DNA from: Gallicola sp. | GTDB taxonomy: Bacteria; Bacillota; Clostridia; Tissierellales; Peptoniphilaceae | Direction of reading: 5' to 3' | NCBI GenBank assembly: GCA_012798975.1 | Contig: JAAZME010000249.1 | Coordinates: 1 to 9,082, forward strand | Length of the DNA: 9,082 nt | Part shown: positions 82 through 9,082 of the stretch, piece by piece | Layout: every line of letters begins with the position of its first letter | How positions within the stretch are numbered: position 1 is the first letter of the stretch | Position numbers and translations under genes: made by a program | The notes under the pieces: model-generated | The model's database searches: none | Told to the model about the DNA's origin: nothing | What the model saw: only the letters and a program-made list of their open reading frames with translations

Positions 82-122
82 GACCAGAGCTAAGGATACC
101 ATCCGGCTCTGGTCTTTTAATT
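82..122 (+). terminator. Strong intrinsic terminator of the upstream unit
   Basis: A perfect 9-bp stem, GACCAGAGC (82-90) with GCTCTGGTC (106-114), encloses an inner 4-bp helix, GGAT (94-97) with ATCC (101-104), and is followed directly by TTTTAATT (115-122). The T-run exists only on the + strand side, so it ends transcription arriving from the left. Its last bases run into the -35 box of the next promoter, so the two transcription units are packed with no spare sequence. Confidence 0.85.
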
Positions 123-149
123 GACAAATAACTTTCTTATTACTAATAT
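121..149 (+). promoter_or_regulatory. Sigma-A-type promoter of the trk operon
   Basis: A perfect -35 box, TTGACA (121-126), is separated by 17 bases from a -10 box TAATAT (144-149, 4 of 6 matches to TATAAT). Transcription would start near 156 and leave an untranslated leader of roughly 45 bases before the first trkH. The reading frame of trkH is open back to this TTG, but the TTG is better explained as the -35 element than as a start codon. No potassium or c-di-AMP riboswitch fits in so short a leader. Confidence 0.65.
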
Positions 150-191
150 AGGATTAATGCGGGTTATAAATACCTGTGAATTCAATAAAAT

Positions 192-196
192 AGGAG
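192..196 (+). promoter_or_regulatory. Ribosome-binding site that sets the trkH start
   Basis: AGGAG lies 5 bases before the ATG at 202. No comparable site precedes the in-frame TTG at 121 or the ATG at 157. The choice is confirmed by the second trkH, which begins at the same residue and has the same length. Confidence 0.75.
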
Positions 197-201
197 TTTC
201 T

Positions 202-1653
202 ATGAACATTAAATTAGTTCTTAATATGCTCGGCAAAATATTTACATTGGAAGCTTTATTTATGATACTTCCTCTTATCGTAGCCCTTTATTACAGGGAA
301 AGCTATCTGAATATCTTTTCGATTCTTTTTGTTATCGGTATTTTATTAGTACTAGGTCTCGCTGCTAATTTTATCGATAATAGAGATATGGTATTTGGCG
401 TGAAGGAAGGATTTGCTGTTGTAACCTTCTCTTGGCTAGGAATGTCTTTTTTCGGCGGTCTGCCCTTCGTAATAAACGGACAGATTCCAAGCCTTATCGA
501 TGCTGTTTTCGAGATGGCCTCCGGCTTTACTACAACGGGAGCCAGTATTTTAACGGATGTAGAATCCCTTTCTCAGTCCATGCTTTTTTGGAGAAGCTTT
601 TCGCATTTCATCGGTGGAATGGGTATTCTTGTTTTCGCTTTGGCTGTTCTTCCGAAAGATGTCAGAGGTACCGTCAACGTAATGAAAGCAGAGGTCCCTG
701 GTCCCAGCTTCGGAAAACTTGTCAGCAAATTAGATATTACTGCTAAAATCCTTTATAAAATTTATGTAGCCATGACCCTTGTTTTAATCCTGGTTTTGAT
801 TATAGCCGGTATGTCTCCCTTTGACTCTATGATTCACGCTTTTGGAGCTGCCGGAACTGGAGGTTTCAGCAACAAAGCTGCCAGTGTAGGCTATTATAAC
901 AGCGCTCTTATAGACTATATATTGGGGATTGGGATGATCGTATTTGGTATTAACTTCAACCTTTATTATATGATTTTAATCGGACGGGTACGAGATGTAT
1001 TTCACAGCGAAGAATTAAAAGTTTATCTGTTTATTATCATCGGTGCAGTGGCCCTTATTTGTTTTAATCTCCGAGACCTCTATGGCAGTTTTTCGGAATT
1101 ATTGCGTCATGTGTTTTTCACCGTTTCATCTATTATAACAACCACAGGGTATGCTACCGTAGATTTCGACTTATGGCATCCCTTTTCTAGAACTATACTT
1201 TTAATGCTGATGTTTATCGGTTCTTGTGCCGGATCGACAGCTGGAGGACTGAAAGTTTCCCGAATTGTGATATTAGTAAAATCAGCGATCAACGAAGTGC
1301 GAAAAGCCATCCAGCCTCGAAGAGTTTTTCTGATTACTGAAACGGAAAAAAAACTTCCGGGAAATATCATTCGCAGCACCCAAAACTATTTCTTTATCTA
1401 TATGCTGGTCTTTGCAACGTTTCTTTTGGCAGTTTCCTTTGATGCCAATAATTTCCTGACGGCCTTCAGCTCTGTTGCAGCAACCTTAAACAATATCGGG
1501 CCAGGAATGTCTGCAGTAGGTCCTACGGGAAATTTTGCTTTTTACAGACCTTTCGTTAAAATCATGCTGACGATAGCGATGATCGTAGGCCGTCTGGAAA
1601 TTATACCGATCCTTGTACTGTTTATGCCGAGTACATGGAAAAAACGAACTTAA
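202..1653 (+). CDS. trkH: TrkH-type potassium channel subunit, copy 1
   Basis: This 483-residue polytopic membrane protein belongs to the TrkH/KtrB/HKT superfamily, which forms the K+ pore of Trk uptake systems. The fold consists of repeated helix, pore-loop, helix units. The four filter loops are visible: TTTGAS (G113), GTGGFS (G220), TTTGYA (G316) and NNIGPG (G433). All four keep the conserved glycine. The hydrophilic signature SCAGSTAGG follows loop 3. The C-terminal IGRLE motif has R464 in the position of the pore-facing gating arginine of the family. The start at 202 is chosen from the AGGAG site and the match to copy 2; an extension to 121 would run through the promoter. It is the first gene of trkH-trkA-trkH, 64 bases before trkA. 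As family knowledge, TrkH works as a dimer on a TrkA ring gated by nucleotides. By its filter this copy should be a normal K+ conduit. The family assignment is very secure. Confidence 0.96.
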   Translation: MNIKLVLNMLGKIFTLEALFMILPLIVALYYRESYLNIFSILFVIGILLVLGLAANFIDNRDMVFGVKEGFAVVTFSWLGMSFFGGLPFVINGQIPSLIDAVFEMASGFTTTGASILTDVESLSQSMLFWRSFSHFIGGMGILVFALAVLPKDVRGTVNVMKAEVPGPSFGKLVSKLDITAKILYKIYVAMTLVLILVLIIAGMSPFDSMIHAFGAAGTGGFSNKAASVGYYNSALIDYILGIGMIVFGINFNLYYMILIGRVRDVFHSEELKVYLFIIIGAVALICFNLRDLYGSFSELLRHVFFTVSSIITTTGYATVDFDLWHPFSRTILLMLMFIGSCAGSTAGGLKVSRIVILVKSAINEVRKAIQPRRVFLITETEKKLPGNIIRSTQNYFFIYMLVFATFLLAVSFDANNFLTAFSSVAATLNNIGPGMSAVGPTGNFAFYRPFVKIMLTIAMIVGRLEIIPILVLFMPSTWKKRT

Positions 1654-1681
1654 TACAAAACAAACCGTTTCATTATAAATC

Positions 1682-1690
1682 TGCTATGAT
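1682..1690 (+). promoter_or_regulatory. Possible extended -10 promoter for trkA
   Basis: TGC followed by TATGAT (5 of 6 matches to TATAAT) forms an extended -10 element in the 64-base gap before trkA. No good -35 box is seen 16-18 bases upstream, so it rests on the TGn extension alone. It would allow trkA and the second trkH to be expressed without the first trkH. Confidence 0.3.
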
Positions 1691-1717
1691 AGGATGAATG
1701 ACTAAATTGGAGGAATT

Positions 1718-3073
1718 ATGAAAATTGTAATTGTTGGCGGCGGAAAAGTAGGCAATGCCATCTGCAGAGAATTAGAAGAATATTGCGATATCGTTTTAAT
1801 CGATATCGATCCGAATGTTGTCGAGATGCTTTTTTCACAATACGATATCCAAGCCGTTGTCGGAAACGGCGCCGATGTAAATATTCAAAAGGAGGCAACT
1901 GTGGAAGATGCAGATATCTTTCTTGCAGTTACCACCTCTGACGAACTGAATATGGTCTCTTGTATTGTGGCAAAGGAACTAGGAGTAAAGCACATTATCG
2001 CCCGGGTTCGAAATCCGGAATATCGAAATAGTGTGGATTTTATAAAGAGCCGTCTGGGAATTACTGCCATGATCAACCCCGAAGAAGAAGCAGCAAAGAA
2101 AATCTCCCAGATTCTTCAGTTCCCTACAGCTATAGGTGTTGAAACCTTTGCAGAAGAAAAAGTCCATATGGTATCCGTCCTTATCGAAGAAAATACCTTC
2201 TTAAAGGATGTGACATTAAAAGAATTCGACGAGTCTTTCGATGGAAAGCTCTTGATATGTATTGTAGAAAGAGATGGTGAAGCTTTCATACCGAAAGGCG
2301 CCACACGTATATTGGAAGGGGATATTGTTCATCTGACAGGAAGCCACGATGACCTGAATAAATTTTATCGAAATTTCAAAGAATTCAACTCCCCCATCGA
2401 TTCTACTTTGATTATCGGCGGCGGAAAAATGGGATACTATCTCCTCCGAGAATTGACAAACAAAAAGATGGAGATCAAACTCATCGAGATAAAACCAGAA
2501 ACAACAGAATTCCTTTCTGAAACGTTCCCGGATATTTCCGTAATACATGCCGATGGAACAGATCAGGATATTTTAGACAGCGAAGGAATTTCAGCTTATG
2601 ACAGCTGCATCGCTTTAACAGGAATTGATGAAGAAAATATTATTATTTCTATTTTTTCAAAATACAGAAATGTAAGAAAATCCATCGCCAAGGTAAATCG
2701 TACTTCCATGTTGAAGCTTATCGGTCATACAGAACTGGATACTATTATCACTCCTCAAAGAATCATAGCCGATAAAATCGTCCGTTTTGTCCGCTCCTTA
2801 AATGCTACTGGGGATACTGCTATAGAAAACCTTCATACATTAGCCGATCACAAAGTCGAAGCTTTAGAATTCATAGCCAACGAACATTCAAAGGGAATCG
2901 GTATCCCTTTAATGGAGTTGGAACTCTTAGACAACACTATGGTAGCCTTTATCTTTAGAGACGGCGAACTACTCTTCCCAAGCGGTAAAGATTCAATATT
3001 GGCAGGAGATCGTGTTGTTATTGTCACGACTCATAACAACATTGACGAATTAGACGACCTTCTTGTGAAATAG
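1718..3073 (+). CDS. trkA: TrkA, NAD-binding regulator of TrkH channels
   Basis: This 451-residue cytoplasmic protein contains two full RCK units, as in classic TrkA (KtrA-type regulators have one). The first Rossmann fold begins at residue 3 with GGGKVG (7-12) and an acidic residue at the end of the second strand (D29). It is followed by a TrkA_C-like segment around 140-220. The second Rossmann fold repeats the pattern with GGGKMG (234-239) and E257, followed by a second TrkA_C-like domain in roughly the last 80 residues. In the family TrkA assembles as a ring under the TrkH dimer and gates it in response to adenine nucleotides or NAD(H). A good GGAGG lies 4 bases before the ATG. It stops 8 bases before the second trkH, and that gene's ribosome-binding site overlaps its stop codon. 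One TrkA thus sits between two channel genes and probably serves both. Nothing in it looks damaged. Confidence 0.95.
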   Translation: MKIVIVGGGKVGNAICRELEEYCDIVLIDIDPNVVEMLFSQYDIQAVVGNGADVNIQKEATVEDADIFLAVTTSDELNMVSCIVAKELGVKHIIARVRNPEYRNSVDFIKSRLGITAMINPEEEAAKKISQILQFPTAIGVETFAEEKVHMVSVLIEENTFLKDVTLKEFDESFDGKLLICIVERDGEAFIPKGATRILEGDIVHLTGSHDDLNKFYRNFKEFNSPIDSTLIIGGGKMGYYLLRELTNKKMEIKLIEIKPETTEFLSETFPDISVIHADGTDQDILDSEGISAYDSCIALTGIDEENIIISIFSKYRNVRKSIAKVNRTSMLKLIGHTELDTIITPQRIIADKIVRFVRSLNATGDTAIENLHTLADHKVEALEFIANEHSKGIGIPLMELELLDNTMVAFIFRDGELLFPSGKDSILAGDRVVIVTTHNNIDELDDLLVK

Positions 3074-3078
3074 GTGAG
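3072..3078 (+). promoter_or_regulatory. Ribosome-binding site overlapping the trkA stop codon
   Basis: AGGTGAG begins inside the TAG stop codon of trkA (3071-3073) and sits 3 bases before the ATG at 3082. Ribosomes finishing trkA would therefore clear or reuse the site of the second trkH, which suggests translational coupling of TrkA with the second channel rather than with the first. Confidence 0.6.
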
Positions 3079-3081
3079 AAT

Positions 3082-4533
3082 ATGAATTATCGTTTAATCC
3101 TAAGTATGTTGGGAAGGATCTTGACTTTAGAAGCACTTTTCATGGCAGCGCCGCTTATTGTGGCCCTTGTTTATAGAGAAAGTTTATTAAATATCTTCTC
3201 CATACTTGTCGTAATCGCAATACTTCTAGCGATAGGCTTTTTATCCAGCACCATCGACCTTGCCCATATGCATTTTGGCGTAAAAGAAGGTTTCGTCGCT
3301 GTTACTCTAACCTGGATATTAATGTCATTATTCGGCTGTCTGCCTCTTTTAATCAATGGACAGATCCCGGACTTCATCGATGCTTTTTTCGAAATCGCAT
3401 CCGGTTTTACTACAACCGGGGCAAGTGTCCTGCCGGCAGGAGAATATTTATCGAAATCGATGATGTTTTGGAGAAGCTTTACCCACTTTATAGGAGGAAT
3501 GGGAATCCTCGTTTTCGCTTTAGCTGTGTTTCCAAAAAAAGTAGATGGAACCGTTTATGTAATGAAAGCTGAAATGCCCGGCCCCTCTTTCGGCAAACTT
3601 GTATCTAAAGCAGATATCACCGCTAAAATCCTATATAAAATCTACATAACAATGACGATAGCACTGATAATTATCTTGATCTTCGCTGGAATGGATCCAT
3701 ACGATTCTATGATTCACGCTTTTGGAACTGCAGGAACAGGAGGATTCAGCAATAAAGCACTGAGTATTGCCGAATTCAACAATCCTCTTATCGATTATAT
3801 CTTGGCAATATTTATGTATGCCTTCAGCATTAATTTTTATATATATTATTTAATTTTGATCGGCCGGGGAAAAGAAGCCTTTCGAAGCGAGGAACTAAAA
3901 GCCTATTTTATGATTCTTATTGCGGCGGTTTTACTAATTTCTTTTAATGTAAAAGATATGTATCAGTCCTTTTCCGAAATGTTTCGGCACGTATTTTTTA
4001 CCGTAACGTCGCTTATGTCTACCACCGGATTTGCCAACACCGATTTCACTGCTTGGCCGGAATTTTCTCATTTTGTTTTAAATATCCTTATCTTCATCGG
4101 ATCCTGTGCCGGGTCGACTGGAGGAGGTCTTAAAGTATCCAGGATTATTATCCTTATTAAAGCAGGACTTAACGAAATCAAACAATCTATCAGCCCAAGA
4201 AGAGTTTTAACGATAACAGAAGACGCCAGACGGGTTCCAGACAATATTATAAAAAGCGCTCTCGTCTACTTCTTTATTTATGTTATAACTTTTATCACCC
4301 TCCTGTTTTTTGTCTCTCTCGATAACGTAGACAGCACCACCGCTTTTAATGCAGTATCCGCTACCTTAAATACAAACGCTCCCGGTGTAGAAATCGTGGG
4401 CCTCGACGGAACCTATTCTTTCTTCAGTCCTTTAAGCAAAATCTTTTTAACGATGGCTATGATTATAGGAAGACTTGAAATCATCCCCATACTAGTACTC
4501 TTTATGCCTAGAACCTGGAAGACGAAATATTGA
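3082..4533 (+). CDS. trkH: TrkH-type cation channel subunit, copy 2, with altered filter
   Basis: This is a paralogue of the first trkH with the same length (483 residues) and no visible offset. Hand comparison of the first 117 residues gives about two thirds identity. Filter loops 1-3 are conserved: TTTGAS (G113), GTGGFS (G220) and STTGFA (G316). In loop 4 the expected N-x-G-P-G reads N-T-N-A-P-G (430-435): A433 (codon GCT, 4378-4380) replaces the filter glycine that copy 1 has as GGG. The loop-3 signature also differs, SCAGSTGGG against SCAGSTAGG. The IGRLE motif with R464 is intact and the gene has no frameshift or stop, so it looks functional. In the superfamily, replacing filter glycines (as Ser does in Na+-transporting HKT proteins) weakens K+ selectivity. 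By inference this copy may pass Na+ more readily, have lower K+ affinity, or act mainly as a partner of copy 1. It is coupled to trkA by an 8-base gap. Confidence 0.95.
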   Translation: MNYRLILSMLGRILTLEALFMAAPLIVALVYRESLLNIFSILVVIAILLAIGFLSSTIDLAHMHFGVKEGFVAVTLTWILMSLFGCLPLLINGQIPDFIDAFFEIASGFTTTGASVLPAGEYLSKSMMFWRSFTHFIGGMGILVFALAVFPKKVDGTVYVMKAEMPGPSFGKLVSKADITAKILYKIYITMTIALIIILIFAGMDPYDSMIHAFGTAGTGGFSNKALSIAEFNNPLIDYILAIFMYAFSINFYIYYLILIGRGKEAFRSEELKAYFMILIAAVLLISFNVKDMYQSFSEMFRHVFFTVTSLMSTTGFANTDFTAWPEFSHFVLNILIFIGSCAGSTGGGLKVSRIIILIKAGLNEIKQSISPRRVLTITEDARRVPDNIIKSALVYFFIYVITFITLLFFVSLDNVDSTTAFNAVSATLNTNAPGVEIVGLDGTYSFFSPLSKIFLTMAMIIGRLEIIPILVLFMPRTWKTKY

Positions 4534-4555
4534 TTGAAAAGAGGAAGAGATAGGC

Positions 4556-4624
4556 GGGATTGCTTTGCAACCCAGGCAGGATGCCTTTGGCACCTAGGCA
4601 CTAGGCGGCACACCTACGGTGGCT
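4556..4624 (+). repeat. Three isostructural bulged hairpins
   Basis: Hairpin 1 is 4556-4573: GGG, bulged A, TTGC, loop TTT, GCAA, CCC. Hairpin 2 is 4578-4595: AGG, bulged A, TGCC, loop TTT, GGCA, CCT. Hairpin 3 is 4607-4624: GGC, bulged A, CACC, loop TAC, GGTG, GCT, with one G.U pair at the base. The sequences differ but the plan (3 bp, A bulge, 4 bp, 3-base loop) is the same, as expected for diverged copies kept or spread by structure. Confidence 0.6.
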
Positions 4625-4640
4625 AGGAGAAGAAAGGGCG

Positions 4641-4668
4641 TAGGTGATAGGGACTAGCGAGTAGGGAT
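4641..4668 (+). repeat. Four tandem TAGgGan heptamers
   Basis: Four consecutive 7-base units start at 4641, 4648, 4655 and 4662, each beginning with TAG and most with TAGG. A further tandem pair starts at 4595 and 4602, and single units start at 4551 and 4624. The 7-base period does not maintain a reading frame with any plausible protein. Confidence 0.55.
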
Positions 4669-4671
4669 GGT

Positions 4672-4692
4672 AGAAAATGCAGAGCATTTTCT
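4672..4692. repeat. Perfect 9-bp hairpin with AGA loop
   Basis: AGAAAATGC (4672-4680) pairs perfectly with GCATTTTCT (4684-4692) across a 3-base loop. No T-run follows, so it is not a terminator. It is one unit of the hairpin array. Confidence 0.6.
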
Positions 4693-4705
4693 TCGCATAT
4701 AAAAA

Positions 4706-4743
4706 GGCGTCGTTAGACGCTCCCCTGCTTCTAAGCGTTGGGG
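4706..4743 (+). repeat. Two adjacent hairpins in the array
   Basis: The first pairs GCGTC (4707-4711) with GACGC (4716-4720) around a GTTA tetraloop, extended by a G.U pair at 4706/4721. The second starts at the next base: CCCC (4722-4725) pairs with GGGG (4740-4743), and GCT (4727-4729) pairs with AGC (4734-4736) around a TCTA loop, with a U.G pair at 4726/4737 and two unpaired T. The lack of spacing between them suggests coaxial stacking in an RNA. Confidence 0.5.
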
Positions 4744-4759
4744 GTGTAAAAGGAGGGGG

Positions 4760-4810
4760 TCTGGGGGAGGATATGAGGTCGAATCGCAACGCCCTTCATC
4801 CTCCCCCAGA
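4760..4810. repeat. 13-bp inverted repeat closing the array
   Basis: TCTGGGGGAGGAT (4760-4772) is perfectly complementary to ATCCTCCCCCAGA (4798-4810). The 25-base loop can form a small inner helix (4775-4778 with 4793-4796). It is the longest perfect inverted repeat I see in the window, and no T-run follows. Confidence 0.7.
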
Positions 4811-4862
4811 GCTGGAAACTGAGACCTTTCGTATACCGTATAAGCAACGAAAAACCATAACC

Positions 4863-4880
4863 AAAAGCTTAAGCTTTTTT
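4863..4880 (+). terminator. Weak intrinsic terminator of the trk operon
   Basis: AAAAGC (4863-4868) pairs with GCTTTT (4873-4878) around a TTAA loop, and T4875-4880 forms a six-T run. The stem is AT-rich, so it may be inefficient. It is the first terminator-like element after the second trkH, which leaves the hairpin array inside the predicted transcript. Confidence 0.5.
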
Positions 4881-4908: not shown

Positions 4909-4946
4909 AAAACACAAAAGACAATCCCCTTCGGAATTGTCTTTTG
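4909..4946 (-). terminator. Terminator between convergent units (SRAP gene end)
   Basis: CAAAAGACAAT (4915-4925) pairs with ATTGTCTTTTG (4936-4946). On the - strand the helix continues through a U.G pair and two C-G pairs to a GAAG loop (about 14 bp), followed by TGTTTTAT. On the + strand one pair becomes a C.A mismatch, although the loop can form a TTCG tetraloop and a GGTTTTAT tail follows. It therefore fits the - strand best, 3 bases after the SRAP stop codon, but may act in both directions. Confidence 0.8.
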
Positions 4947-4949
4947 GTT

Positions 4950-5519
4950 TTATAGAAAGTTTAATTGTTCTGGGTCTTTTTGGCGAAAGAAGAAATCTGG
5001 TTTTTTCTCTATAAGTTTTTGATAAAGATTTTCATGATTTTCTTCTAAAAAGAAATCTCCTTCCTCCGGGTTTAAAACTACCGGCATTCTGTGATGAATG
5101 CTCCCCATTTCTCCGAAAGAATCTAACGTTAAAATCGAAATCTCTTTTTTTCCTTCTTCGTTATAACGGTATAATCCGCCTAAATAAAAATATGATTCTT
5201 CTTGTATTCCGATTTCGTATCGGGTATTCGCTTTACCGCTTTTTTTCCATTCGAAAAAGAAGGAAGCTGGAATGATACAGCGCCGCTCTTTATAATCTTC
5301 TAAAAAGAAACCGGAAGGATATAGCTTGTCGATTCGGCTGTTGATAATCGGTCGATTTAGAAAATCTACCCGAATTCCCCACAAGTCCTTTTGAAAACCA
5401 GAACCTTTCTCTCGATAATAAATATCCATACCGGGAGAATATTCTTTTTTCTTAACGGGATTTAGAACATCCCAGGATTCTCTTAGATCTTCCGGATCGA
5501 AATAAAATCTGCCGCACAT
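4950..5519 (-). CDS. SRAP-domain protein (YedK/HMCES family)
   Basis: This 189-residue protein of the SOS-response-associated peptidase family forms covalent crosslinks to abasic sites in single-stranded DNA and so shields them from strand breakage. The key residues are present: C2 directly after the initiator Met (MCGRF), N60 in INSR, E90 in IPASFFFEW, and H142 in HHRMP. C2 must be freed by Met removal to form the thiazolidine link, which fixes the start at 5519. It is somewhat shorter than E. coli YedK (about 222 residues), and the usual NARxET motif reads NSRIDK. The ATG overlaps the transketolase TAA by one base (TAATG), and no Shine-Dalgarno sequence is seen upstream, so translation probably depends on termination-reinitiation after transketolase. 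The pairing of DNA-damage tolerance with a pentose-phosphate enzyme has no obvious functional logic. A terminator follows directly. Confidence 0.93.
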   Translation of the reverse strand: MCGRFYFDPEDLRESWDVLNPVKKKEYSPGMDIYYREKGSGFQKDLWGIRVDFLNRPIINSRIDKLYPSGFFLEDYKERRCIIPASFFFEWKKSGKANTRYEIGIQEESYFYLGGLYRYNEEGKKEISILTLDSFGEMGSIHHRMPVVLNPEEGDFFLEENHENLYQKLIEKKPDFFFRQKDPEQLNFL

Positions 5520-7495
5520 TATTCGCTTAAGAGAGATAATGCATCTTCTAGAACGCGCTCAACGGTAAAACCGAACTCTTCAAAAAGTGTCGCTGCAGGA
5601 GCAGAAGCACCGAAATGATCGATTCCGATTGCATTGCCGTCAAGACCTACATATCGTTCCCATCCGAAAGTAGATCCTGCTTCTACAGATATTCTCTTTC
5701 TCACTTCTTTTGGAAGTACTCTTTCTTTATATTCTTCATCTTGTTCTTCAAAGACATCCATACTCGGCATAGAAACTACACGGACACCATATCCCTGCTG
5801 CTCCAGCTTTTCAGCTGCTTTGTAGATCAAAGAAACTTCTGATCCGGATGCCATTAAGATAATATCCATTTTCTCGCCGAAATCTCGAAGTACATAAGCT
5901 CCTTTTAAAGCGTCTTTCCCTGTTTCTTTAAGATTTTCAAGTTTTTGTCTTGTTAAGGCAATCGCAGTAGGACCTGTTTTATGTCGTAGTCCATAGCTGT
6001 AGGCAGCTGCTGTTTCCTTAGCATCGCAAGGTCTGAAAAGAGTCATGTTAGGAGTGGATCTTAACATCGCAAGCTGTTCGATCGGCTCATGAGTCGGTCC
6101 GTCTTCTCCTACACCGATACTATCGTGAGTTAACACATAAAGAAGTCTTAACTTCATAATAGAAGCAAGTCTCATCGGCGGTTTCATATAATCTGCAAAG
6201 ACAAAGAAAGTTGAGCAGTATGGAACAAATCCTCCATGAAGAGCAATACCGTTTGTAATAGCTGTCATCGCCAATTCCCGAACACCAAACTGAATATTTC
6301 TACCTTCCCGATTATCCTTTGAATAATTGGAAGTATTTTTCATATTCGACTTGTTTGATGGCGCCAAGTCAGCAGATCCGCCGATTAAGTTTGTCATCTT
6401 TTCAGCTAGTTTGTTTAAAACAACGCCAGAATGAGATCTTGTTGCATCGTCTTTTTCAAACTCATAGAATTCGTCGCTGTCTAAATACTCTTCTGGTATC
6501 TCGCCATTTAACGAATTTTCTAATTCTTCCCCTAATTCAGGAAAGGCTTTTTGATATTCAGAATAAAGGGCATCCCATTCTTCGTTTAACTTCTTTGATC
6601 TATTTTTAGATTCTTCCACTAAAGATCTTACTTCCTCTGGAACATAGAACTCTTCTTCATATTCCCATTGGAATTTTTCTTTTAGTTTTACCACATTTTC
6701 TTCTCCAAGAGGTGCTCCATGAGACTTCTCGGAATCTTCTAGTACAGATCCATAGCCGATCTTTGTTTTAATCTCAATGATAGAAGGCTTGTCTGTTTTT
6801 TTAGCTTCCTCTATTGTAGAAGCTATTTTTTCTAAATCATTTCCATCTTCTACGAAAAATGTACTCCATCCCAATGCATCATATCTTTTTAATACATCTT
6901 CAGAGAATGTATTGTCTGTTCTTCCTTCAATACTGATATTATTGGAATCGTATAAAACGATCAGCTTTTCAAGTCCCATAGAGCCGGCAAAAGAAGCTGC
7001 CTCGTTTGTGATGCCTTCCATCATACATCCGTCGCTGGATAAAACATAAGTATAATGGTCGATGATATTAAAATTATCTTTGTTAAAACGTGCTGCAAGA
7101 TTCGATTCGGCAAGTGCCATACCGACTCCCATTGCAAACCCTTGTCCTAAAGGACCTGTAGTTGCTTCTACTCCCACAGTGTCTCCGTATTCAGGATGAC
7201 CTGGCGTATTGCTGCCCCATTGTCTGAAGCTTTGAAGATCTTCTTTTGTAACACCGTATCCGAAAATATGAAGCAAAGAATACAGCAGCATGGATCCATG
7301 ACCTGCCGATAATATAAAGCGGTCTCTGTTGATCCAGTTTGGATTTTCCGGATTATGATTCATACAATCATTCCATAACGAAAAAGCCATTGGCGCAGCC
7401 CCTAAAGGTAGTCCCGGATGACCGGAGTTCGCTTTTTGAACACCTTCAGCGGATAAAATACGAATCGTATTGACTGCCAAGTTTTTTATACTCAT
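5519..7495 (-). CDS. tkt: Transketolase
   Basis: This 658-residue cytoplasmic, thiamine-diphosphate- and divalent-metal-dependent enzyme moves two-carbon ketol units between sugar phosphates in the non-oxidative pentose phosphate pathway. It is full length (E. coli TktA has 663 residues), not the split form found in some bacteria. The N-terminal ThDP domain carries H26 (NSGHPG), H66 (SAGHG), H100 (TPGHP) and the metal/diphosphate motif from D155 (SDGCMMEG) to N185 (YDSNN). The pyrimidine domain has GVRE with the glutamate that activates the cofactor, and the [14 protein letters not shown] segment. The C-terminal domain ends with [15 protein letters not shown]. The first glycine of the usual GDG is serine (S154), which does not touch the metal ligand. 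AAGGTGG (7503-7509) lies 7 bases before the ATG. The SRAP gene is coupled at its 3' end. Confidence 0.97.
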
Positions 7496-7613: not shown

Positions 7614-8354
7614 TTATGCCGTTATGCTGCTATTGGTTTTTGCTATTTTTTCGATCTTTCCCTCTTTTATTTCTACTATTTCATCATAGAGGCTCTTGTC
7701 TTCCTGACTCAGCTTATGGGTAATACAGATACAGGTCTTGTCTTTCAGCTGCAGGATCTGTTTTAAAATTTCTTTTGAGGTGCCTCTGTCCAAGGAAGAG
7801 GTCGCTTCATCTAAAATAAGTATCGGACTTTCCCTCATCAGCATTCTAGCAATAGCTATCCGCTGTTTTTCTCCTCCGGATAAATTATGTCCGCATTCAA
7901 AGATATAATCGTCTAGTCCAAGCCGCTTATCCTGCATGACCTGATACAGCCCCGAGCATCGCAGCACCTCCTGGATCTTTTCTTCATCGATTTCTTTAAA
8001 TAAAGTGATGTTCTCTCTAATAGTACCGTCAAACAAAAAAATATCCTGATGAATTGAGGAGATTACCATACTAAGAGCGTCTTCCGACAAATCCTTGTAT
8101 TCTTTTCCATCTATCTTAAGTTTGCCTTTATAATGATCGAAATAATTTAGAATCAATTTGCAGATTGTACTTTTCCCAGCTCCGCTTTCGCCAGTTATGG
8201 CATACTTTTTCCCTTTTTGAAAACACATATTAGCGCCTTTTAGAATTTTCTTATCCTGAAATGAAAATTCAAGGTTTTCCAATACAATTTCTTTTTGAAA
8301 TTCTTTAATTTCAGCGATTCCTTTCGAAACCTTCTTCGATTCTATAAAGGCCAA
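7614..8354 (-). CDS. ABC exporter ATPase domain, separated from its membrane domain by an in-frame TAG
   Basis: This 246-residue piece is a complete ABC-type ATPase domain of exporter type. Numbered from the TTG codon as Met 1 it shows Walker A GESGAGKST (55-63), the Q-loop around Q103, the signature LSGGE (158-162), Walker B ILILDE (178-183), D-loop SSLD (186-189) and switch H213. Nothing is missing from the fold. It lies in the same frame as the preceding membrane domain and is separated from it only by TAG, GAG and CAG. TTG at 8354 is the only sensible start: the next ATG (M43) would remove the first strands and the A-loop region. AGGAG precedes the TTG by 3 bases, closer than usual. Either it is translated as its own subunit by reinitiation, or the pair is a single exporter gene broken by a nonsense mutation. 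The substrate cannot be inferred. A terminator follows. Confidence 0.85.
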   Translation of the reverse strand: MAFIESKKVSKGIAEIKEFQKEIVLENLEFSFQDKKILKGANMCFQKGKKYAITGESGAGKSTICKLILNYFDHYKGKLKIDGKEYKDLSEDALSMVISSIHQDIFLFDGTIRENITLFKEIDEEKIQEVLRCSGLYQVMQDKRLGLDDYIFECGHNLSGGEKQRIAIARMLMRESPILILDEATSSLDRGTSKEILKQILQLKDKTCICITHKLSQEDKSLYDEIVEIKEGKIEKIAKTNSSITA

Positions 8355-8357
8355 CTG

Positions 8358-8363
8358 CTCCTA
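8358..8363 (-). promoter_or_regulatory. In-frame TAG that doubles as part of a Shine-Dalgarno
   Basis: On the - strand the sequence reads TAGGAG: the stop codon TAG (8363-8361) supplies the first bases of AGGAG (8362-8358), 3 bases before the TTG at 8354. Most codons other than TAG at this place would weaken the AGGAG, so stop and potential ribosome-binding site are one element. Confidence 0.5.
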
Positions 8364-9082
8364 TAAAAGTTCTTTTGAAGAGTTCCGCTCGTTTATTATT
8401 TCGTTCAGTCCGCCGATTGGATTAATCAAAGACGACATCAGCTGGGCTATCGCTACCAATTCTCCTATTCTAATTTCATCTCTTATCACAAGAATCGAAA
8501 CAATAGATATAATTGCAATAATAAGCCCTTCTCCCAAAATAAGATTATAAGAATTGATATTTGATATTTTAACCGAAAAAACCCTCTTTTTCTCAAGCAG
8601 CTCCTCTTTCGATTGATTAAAAGAATGGTCGGCAAAAGATTCTAGTTTATTATTTCGAATAATTTCAAAGGCAGATAGCAGCTCTTTTATCTTTATCACA
8701 TTTTTGCCTATTTCATCATAATAACTGTTTTTATAGCCTGATAGTTTTTCTCCCAATTTCCCTGAAATAAGAAGATATAATATTCCCACTCCCAGCGAGA
8801 GGACTATCATTCGAATATCAATATATATCAGCGACACTAGGGCAAAAAGAACGGCAGACACCATCTGCACTATATCATAAATCCCTGCTATATAAGAATC
8901 CACCACATCTTCTGTATTATTTGTCAGAAGAGACAAGTATCTTCCCTCCGGCTCCTGATAATATTTTCGAAGGGGCTGTTTTAATATCCCCTGATACAGG
9001 TCCCTCCGATAATAAGATTCCGTTTTTTTTATATACATCCCTTTTAGATAGTTATTTGTGCTGTTTAACATGATTTGGACCA
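8361..9082 (-). CDS. ABC exporter membrane domain (5' end outside the window)
   Basis: This is most of an ABC-exporter transmembrane domain. The frame is open to the window edge, so the ATG at 9071 is probably internal. Exporters of this type normally have about 60-80 more residues carrying TM1 and TM2. Counting from 9071, the cytoplasmic segment KTESYYRRDLYQGILKQP (first coupling region) comes first, then TM helices at about 63-84 and 86-104, a long cytoplasmic part with the second coupling helix (SAFEIIRNNKLESF, about 133-146), and TM helices at about 175-196 and 203-222. It ends with NERNSSKELL at a TAG, where related proteins continue through a short linker into the ATPase. After the TAG the same frame runs into the ATPase domain. 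With read-through the protein would have the usual exporter length of about 550 residues. The substrate is unknown; no peptide, modification or immunity gene is visible beside it. Confidence 0.8.
   Translation of the reverse strand, partial: VQIMLNSTNNYLKGMYIKKTESYYRRDLYQGILKQPLRKYYQEPEGRYLSLLTNNTEDVVDSYIAGIYDIVQMVSAVLFALVSLIYIDIRMIVLSLGVGILYLLISGKLGEKLSGYKNSYYDEIGKNVIKIKELLSAFEIIRNNKLESFADHSFNQSKEELLEKKRVFSVKISNINSYNLILGEGLIIAIISIVSILVIRDEIRIGELVAIAQLMSSLINPIGGLNEIINERNSSKELL

What the first reader, a model, noticed from the sequence alone, without database searches (positions are those of the whole stretch)
4551..4810. Dense hairpin-plus-heptamer array in the trk 3' region
Seven hairpins and at least eight TAGGnnn heptamers are packed into about 260 bases with little sequence left over. 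The block has no coding potential and its G-rich composition differs from its surroundings. No terminator separates it from the second trkH, so it may be a structured 3' UTR, a stand-alone ncRNA, or a non-autonomous repeat that spreads by hairpin recognition (as REP elements do with RayT transposases). Three wobble pairs that are G.U only on the + strand favour a + strand RNA.
Basis: partly seen in the sequence, partly recalled or inferred. Interest (0 to 1): 0.75.

Follow-up and report, generated by a model that had tools for sequence, protein, structure and literature searches.

The report
Mosaic hairpin repeats behind bacterial genes
The block is one of about thirty scattered copies of a mosaic of small hairpins that often sit directly behind genes in this bacterium; one of its hairpins recurs in many related bacteria, where another mobile element inserts into it, and the mosaic itself is likely a non-autonomous mobile repeat of the kind known as REP/BIME in E. 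coli.

Summary
In detail: hairpins and 7 TAGG motifs are packed into 4551-4810, and folding is stronger than in shuffles. It is not a single-locus RNA: the window's own genome holds 36 BLAST matches (the window's included), merged by me into 30 entries, built from reshuffled modules. The 5' hairpin units, hairpin P1 and the long hairpin P2 (4760-4810) show compensatory change. P2, with octaloop AATCGNAA and a CGTT..GGG linker, is in 61 of 249 genomes of the order, all 61 in one family, and more rarely in other families of the class and phylum. No Rfam family reaches its threshold on it. In relatives P2 occurs singly, in inverted pairs and in alternating arrays; in this genome 14 of 30 entries start at or just behind a stop codon and none lies between divergent genes. 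In a related genus 12 of 14 places of an IS3-family IS end abut P2 or a P2-like hairpin. This is BIME-like, yet no Y1/RayT gene was found in this genome (82% complete) or in 16 other carriers. Best reading: a REP/BIME-like mosaic repeat family with an unidentified mobilising enzyme.

The parts
3082..4533 (+). second trkH; the repeat's first AGGC starts 18 nt behind its TGA stop
   Evidence: ORF; Pfam TrkH 1e-45; distance
4551..4627 (+). 5' module: three AGGC-flanked hairpin units, each 3 bp, a bulged A, 4 bp, 3-nt loop (4556-4573, 4578-4595, 4607-4624)
   Evidence: sequence; unit survey in the window and 27 own-genome loci (selected on pairing); inner-stem test without pairing selection: 12 of 19 distinct units fully paired, 3.2 after shuffling, maximum 9 in 2000 shuffles
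4624..4672 (+). purine-rich stretch with TAGGnnn heptamers
   Evidence: TAGG positions and shuffle test for the whole block; length varies between copies
4673..4691 (+). A/T-rich hairpin GAAAATGC-AGA-GCATTTTC, overlapping a GTAG here; other copies have GTGG or other letters
   Evidence: sequence
4707..4720 (+). hairpin P1, GCGTC-GTTA-GACGC
   Evidence: P1 in relatives: 17 of 22 distinct cases, picked on the loop motif near a P2, pair at all 7 flanking positions (G.T allowed); mean 6.3 against 3.9 shuffled. The window's own P1 pairs at 5 of 7
4733..4759 (+). G-rich linker with AAGCGTT..GGGGT, conserved in other genera
   Evidence: alignments A1 and A2
4760..4810 (+). long hairpin P2 with octaloop AATCGCAA at 4782-4789
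   Evidence: inverted repeat; 19-pair covariation test; models R1 and R2 and their searches
4824..4853 (+). tail with a predicted weak hairpin P3
   Evidence: seen by eye in this and other own-genome copies; not tested statistically
4910..4951 (.). terminator-like inverted repeat behind the repeat, between convergent genes
   Evidence: arms 4910-4928 and 4933-4951, 84% complementary

Best explanation
The block is one copy of a dispersed mosaic repeat family whose hairpin modules keep their pairing while their sequence changes, and it likely spreads as a non-autonomous REP/BIME-like element that an unidentified enzyme would recognise in folded, single-stranded form. Shown: many own-genome copies with reshuffled modules; compensatory changes; singles, inverted pairs and alternating arrays in relatives; one module nested in another at an orthologous site; a bias to gene 3' ends in the window's genome; and insertion of an IS3-family element into P2 in a related genus. 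Inferred: that the family moves or moved by transposition or copying; that the conserved AATCGNAA loop is a protein contact; that copies directly at stop codons are tolerated because the 5' end brings its own TAG stops. In the window the block would be transcribed as part of the trkH 3' UTR, upstream of the terminator; any effect on the mRNA is untested.
For: Copies: 36 own-genome matches, the window's included, 30 entries after merging. Covariation: P2, 33 chosen sequences, 90.4% of cells paired against 73.9% shuffled, 121 two-sided changes against 42, covariation score 0.486 against 0.198, 0 of 500 shuffles as high on these three, and every slid version lower; units; P1. Spread: 61 of 249 genomes of the order. 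Arrangement: inverted pairs and a + - + - array in L104. Context: 14 of 30 own-genome entries start -21 to +17 nt from the stop of a same-strand ORF; 0 of the 25 with both neighbours called lie between divergent genes. Modular differences at one orthologous site in four species. IS targeting: 14 IS places, 10 abutting canonical P2 and 2 a P2-like hairpin. Known REPs share these habits: TAG stops supplied by GTAG REPs, convergent and unidirectional placement (PMC3733652, passages); IS3-family IS in REPs (PMC1525189, passages).
Against: No clean empty site or target duplication for the repeat itself was found; the genomes offered held no second member of the window's genus. No mobilising gene was found: Y1 is absent from 17 of 61 P2-bearing genomes and RVT_1 from 26 of 61; yet both are commoner in P2-bearing genomes (p 0.0013 and 0.0025). 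The GTRG foot of canonical REPs is not at the 5' units or P2. The conserved linker and loop across families could also mean a functional RNA. In relatives, crude ORF calls put 6 of 46 P2 entries between divergent genes. TAG enrichment at the abutting stops is not significant (9 of 16 against 11 of 39, p 0.067), and one of those 16 is probably a chance motif match 33 nt away.
Confidence: 0.65

Rival explanations
1. P1-linker-P2 is a structured RNA that acts in cis in 3' UTRs, for example as an mRNA 3'-end stabiliser or protein-binding site, and copies are kept for that function.
For: Compensatory pairs and a conserved loop and linker over several families; 3'-end bias and no divergent placement in the window's genome; terminator-like hairpins seen by eye behind several copies; G.U pairs twice as frequent on the + strand.
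Against: Clustering of nearby ORFs showed no recurrent partner that would explain the element; P2 forms inverted pairs and arrays; copies are truncated at different points; folding energy does not favour one strand; there are no transcription data.
Confidence: 0.2
2. The family is classical REP moved by a RayT (TnpA-REP) that was missed because the genome is incomplete.
For: REP-like habits; GTAG or GTGG at the A/T-rich hairpin in several copies; genome only 81.8% complete; Y1 genes are commoner in P2-bearing genomes.
Against: No PF01797 match in the window's genome nor in G007, G043, G008 and G092, 98-99% complete with 14-16 scored P2 matches each; P2 bears no GTRG foot.
Confidence: 0.08
3. 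The copies spread by homologous recombination or template switching between purine-rich TAGG tracts and hairpins, with no dedicated enzyme.
For: 5' ends often at stop codons and variable 3' ends; in four cases the stop is the TAG of the repeat's TAGGCGG; nested module.
Against: Does not explain why the P2 loop and linker stay so conserved across families.
Confidence: 0.07

Closest known systems
REP sequences and BIMEs (GTAG super-family; E. coli palindromic units)
   Same: short palindromes in many copies, inverted pairs and alternating arrays, gene 3' ends, TAG stops supplied to neighbours, IS3-family insertions (PMC3733652, PMC2817692, PMC1525189: passages read)
   Different: no GTRG foot on the 5' units or P2, no Y1 gene found in 17 of 61 carriers of P2, a longer composite, a conserved octaloop
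CGTC-tagged repeats (PMC3733652, passages read)
   Same: palindromic repeats for which no dedicated transposase is known
   Different: no CGTC foot with CCA tail was noticed by eye (no formal search); different architecture
IS1397/ISKpn1 and their REP targets (PMC1525189, passages read)
   Same: IS3-family IS inserting in a palindromic repeat
   Different: a different IS and repeat; here in relatives of the window, in the P2 stem or loop
G-rich heptamer repeats of Xanthomonas and Nostoc (PMC4692102, passages read)
   Same: intergenic G-rich heptameric units
   Different: GGGAATC and GGGGA(T/C)T types there; TAGGnnn inside a hairpin mosaic here; quadruplex formation not tested

Membership tests
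REP/BIME | dispersed palindromic copies in one genome | tested here: met
   36 matches in the window's genome, its own included
REP/BIME | stems that keep pairing while the sequence changes | tested here: met
REP/BIME | inverted pairs or alternating arrays | tested here: met
   in relatives only; no inverted P2 pair stood out among the 8 matches in the window's genome
REP/BIME | GTRG tetranucleotide at the hairpin foot | tested here: not met
   5' units carry AGGC and P2 a G-rich linker; only the A/T-rich hairpin has GTAG or GTGG in some copies
REP/BIME | cognate Y1 transposase (RayT) in the genome | tested here: not met
   none in the window's genome, 81.8% complete; none in 17 of 61 P2-bearing genomes, G000 included
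REP/BIME | extragenic, rarely between divergent genes | tested here: met
   0 of 25 in the window's genome; 6 of 46 entries in relatives by crude ORF calls
Rfam RNA family | score above a family's gathering threshold | tested here: not met
   none in the window; only sub-threshold matches on the element; none on the element at E up to 0.01 in 8 further loci
MITE | terminal inverted repeats with target-site duplication | tested here: inconclusive
   inverted pairs seen in relatives, but no empty site with duplication found

The most novel reading that the evidence does not exclude
A mobile-repeat class of Bacillota built on an AATCGNAA-octaloop hairpin with a CGTT..GGG linker, moved by an enzyme outside the known RayT and reverse-transcriptase routes that places copies at the stop codons of genes in sense orientation.
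Probability: 0.2. Interest if true: 0.75.

Novelty: new variant of a known kind. Interest (0 to 1): 0.5.

Why it matters
Tagged REPs are described mainly in Proteobacteria, with some in Cyanobacteria and other phyla, and the GTAG kind is tied to RayT (PMC3733652, passages). A covarying, IS-targeted mosaic family that hugs stop codons, in a Bacillota lineage where many carriers have no detectable Y1 gene, gives a second system in which to ask what copies such repeats and what they do to mRNA 3' ends. The conserved octaloop gives a handle for finding the protein that binds it.

Tried and rejected
Single-locus ncRNA: rejected by the own-genome copies. Known Rfam family: none reaches threshold on the element; the one match is an S10 leader elsewhere in L221. 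RayT dependence: negative; one search leaves 17 exceptions. A reverse-transcriptase (SINE-like) route: PF00078 absent from 26 of 61 carriers. A recurrent gene neighbour: clustering 201 ORFs within 900 nt of 109 elements gave families that look by eye like surface, transporter and housekeeping proteins, several confined to genus g3, plus the IS orfA; they were not domain-searched. Viral and plasmid carriage: the loop pattern is in 2 viral contigs, one of them inside a 507-aa ORF and so likely chance, the other (L203) not examined; no exact match of a degenerate 5'-unit pattern in viral contigs; no plasmid match. Naming relatives through trkH in genome contigs gave 8 loci at 32-46% identity. Model R2 has only 12 pairs because the automatic alignment split the outer stem; alignment A3 was made and not used.

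Literature: ten searches, nine by words on repeats of this kind or these taxa and one by four sequence strings (none found). Six papers were opened for passages only (PMC3733652, PMC1525189, PMC2817692, PMC4692102, PMC12306157, PMC6006769). Supplements could not be read; a large microbiome RNA-candidate study (PMC8040213, listing only) may hold the motif.

Rows dropped before counts: I listed the 30 entries by hand from the matches, leaving out one 31-nt match at a contig end (L032), and ORFs under 150 aa that overlap an entry were ignored. In one search the 46 P2 entries were picked by hand.

Full report
What was checked. The window carries a trkH-like gene (ORF 121-1653), a trkA-like gene (1718-3073) and a second trkH (3082-4533; Pfam TrkH), then the block, then genes on the other strand beginning with an SRAP protein (4950-5519). 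The names of the first two rest on sequence likeness by eye, not on a search. In 4551-4810 TAGG occurs 7 times against 2.6 expected; the fold beats shuffles on both strands; G+C and GC skew stand out from the flanks. The nearest terminator-like inverted repeat lies behind the block, at 4910-4951. No Rfam family reaches its threshold in the window.

It is a repeat family. The window's genome (G000, 1.70 Mb, 375 contigs, 81.8% complete) holds 36 BLAST matches to 4530-4870 at E up to 0.001, the window itself included; 40 of 45 candidates were scored. Reading the better ones side by side shows one modular order: AGGC-flanked hairpin units, a TAGGnnn purine stretch, an A/T-rich hairpin, hairpin P1, a G-rich linker, the long hairpin P2 and a tail. 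Copies stop at different modules; some hold only the 3' part. The window copy is among the most complete.

Structure is kept while sequence changes. Selecting 5' units by their flanks only, 12 of 19 distinct units have a perfect inner 4-bp stem, against 3.2 on average and at most 9 in 2000 shuffles. For P1, picked on its loop motif near a P2, 17 of 22 distinct cases pair at all 7 flanking positions; the mean is 6.3 against 3.9 shuffled; the window's own P1 pairs at 5 of 7. For P2, on 33 chosen sequences, 90.4% of cells pair against 73.9% in shuffles, and 14 of 19 pairs have two-sided changes (shuffled mean 11.4; 11 of 500 shuffles as high). The number of further pair types was reached by 16 of 500 shuffles; the other three measures by none. 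The structure came from the same alignment, so the slid controls are partly favourable by construction.

Spread of P2. The loop pattern, with up to 1 mismatch, is in 33 of 130 family genomes, 11 of 39 genera; the backward control gave one match in all. Model R1 finds P2 in 61 of 249 genomes of the order, all 61 in the window's family, 15 of 92 genera; up to 16 candidates a genome were scored, so copy numbers are lower bounds. In a draw from the class, 15 of 391 genomes match, 10 in the family and 5 in three other families. I fetched all 10 places in those 5: each keeps an ATCGNAA loop in a long stem of different sequence, behind a CGT..GGGG linker. A draw from the phylum with model R2 gave 3 of 398 genomes, one of them (G672) outside the class; its ATATCGAAAAT loop and G-rich linker are seen by eye, while its inner stem, which has a bulge, failed my automatic stem filter. 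Over all loci held, 79 distinct hairpins have a perfect 6-bp inner stem around xATCGxAA; closing stems alternate among GGGCG/CGCCC, GGGAG/CTCCC, GGGGA/TCCCC, GGGAA/TTCCC and others.

The window's family. By transketolase the nearest named relatives are Miniphocaeibacter (68% identity), which NCBI places in Peptoniphilaceae. The G108 contig length equals that of a Mediannikoviicoccus vaginalis record; NCBI files that genus in Peptostreptococcaceae, while the held genome set puts G108 in the window's family. So 'Peptoniphilaceae' is an inference.

Arrangement and context. In genus g3, P2 often sits in inverted pairs about 280 bp apart with 5' parts facing; in G007 pairs face the other way. Contig L104 of G092 carries alternating + and - copies, the - copies scoring lower. 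In the window's genome, 14 of 30 entries start -21 to +17 nt from the stop codon of a same-strand ORF; none of 25 with two called neighbours lies between divergent genes. Of 16 ORF ends with a unit motif within 40 nt, 9 end in TAG, against 11 of 39 other ORF ends (p 0.067); in four the stop is the TAG of the repeat's own TAGGCGG. The uracil phosphoribosyltransferase in L024 (Pfam) ends GDRLFGTK; that this is its usual C-terminus is recalled, not tested. In other genera the bias is weaker: of 46 P2 entries 18 convergent, 20 tandem, 6 divergent, 2 without a left neighbour.

Movement. At the ArsC-like/NAPRTase locus (Pfam), G045 has an inverted pair, G047 the pair with a 109-bp module between linker and P2 of one half, G044 that module plus about 3.4 kb (with an ABC ATPase and a DUF169 protein) between the halves, and G041 a single half. 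Beside the NAPRTase gene, G042 and G002 show no element in the stretch I read; for G043 I displayed the wrong side; G046 had no match. This shows modular change at one site, not a clean whole-element insertion.

IS landing. In g3, a search for the end of an IS made without reference to P2 gave 14 places in 5 of 8 genomes. Eight are full 1254-bp copies, one is a diverged 1363-bp copy, and five show one end only. The IS has an IS3-type orfA (PF01527) and an rve transposase. Ten places abut canonical P2, two a P2-like hairpin without the octaloop, two (L213, L218) neither. Only in L214 do both flanks fit one P2, with GGGC duplicated; in other full copies the two flanks come from different or inverted P2 halves, which I read as recombination. 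A second rve-type IS in L089 sits in P2 with GCAG on both sides. REP-targeting IS3 elements are known (PMC1525189, passages).

What does not fit or is missing. No Y1 gene in the window's genome; 74 of 130 family genomes have one, and 17 of 61 P2-bearing genomes lack it; RVT_1 is missing in 26 of 61. Both are nevertheless commoner among P2-bearing genomes, 44 of 61 against 30 of 69 and 35 of 61 against 21 of 69, which I read as shared mobile-element load. No gene neighbour suggests a mobiliser. No transcription data exist here; G.U usage leans to the + strand (59 against 30) without an energy difference.

Verdict. It works like REP/BIME, and is filed beside it rather than in it, because the GTRG foot and the RayT were tested and not met. 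A cis-acting 3' UTR RNA remains the main rival. PMC3733652 (passages) reports that GTAG REPs often supply TAG stops and prefer convergent and unidirectional spacers, so the stop-codon habit is not new in kind. By the word counts, PMC3733652, PMC1525189 and PMC2817692 do not use the word Firmicutes; the one passage of PMC12306157 with the word Bacillota lists three species, none of this family. That the family is undescribed rests on these passages and the ten searches only.

Noticed in passing
window 7614-9071 (- strand): An ABC-transporter-like gene appears as two ORFs, 8361-9071 and 7614-8354, which by eye are one frame parted by an in-frame stop; described only, left as it is.
   Followed up: no
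window 121-4533: Two trkH-like genes flank one trkA-like gene.
   Followed up: no
L087:6376-9880: About 3.4 kb with an ABC ATPase and a DUF169 protein lie between the two halves of an inverted P2 pair in G044, where G045 and G047 have only a short centre: the pair may be an insertion hotspot.
   Followed up: partly
L177-L183 (G108), L090-L091 (G012): P2 copies cluster in one chromosomal stretch: 13 of the 15 listed G108 places lie within about 116 kb, and all 7 listed G012 places within about 19 kb; no reason found.
   Followed up: no
L100:4509-4617, L087 about 6340-6450, L089 about 12300-12410: A separate 109-bp module with two hairpins is nested between linker and P2 at several g3 sites: a second small repeat family.
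   Followed up: partly
L009:1-170 (- strand), L017, L012: The TAGG stretch in some copies is expanded as tandem units of about 10 (GATAGGAAAA) and 7 bases (TAGGTTA type).
   Followed up: no
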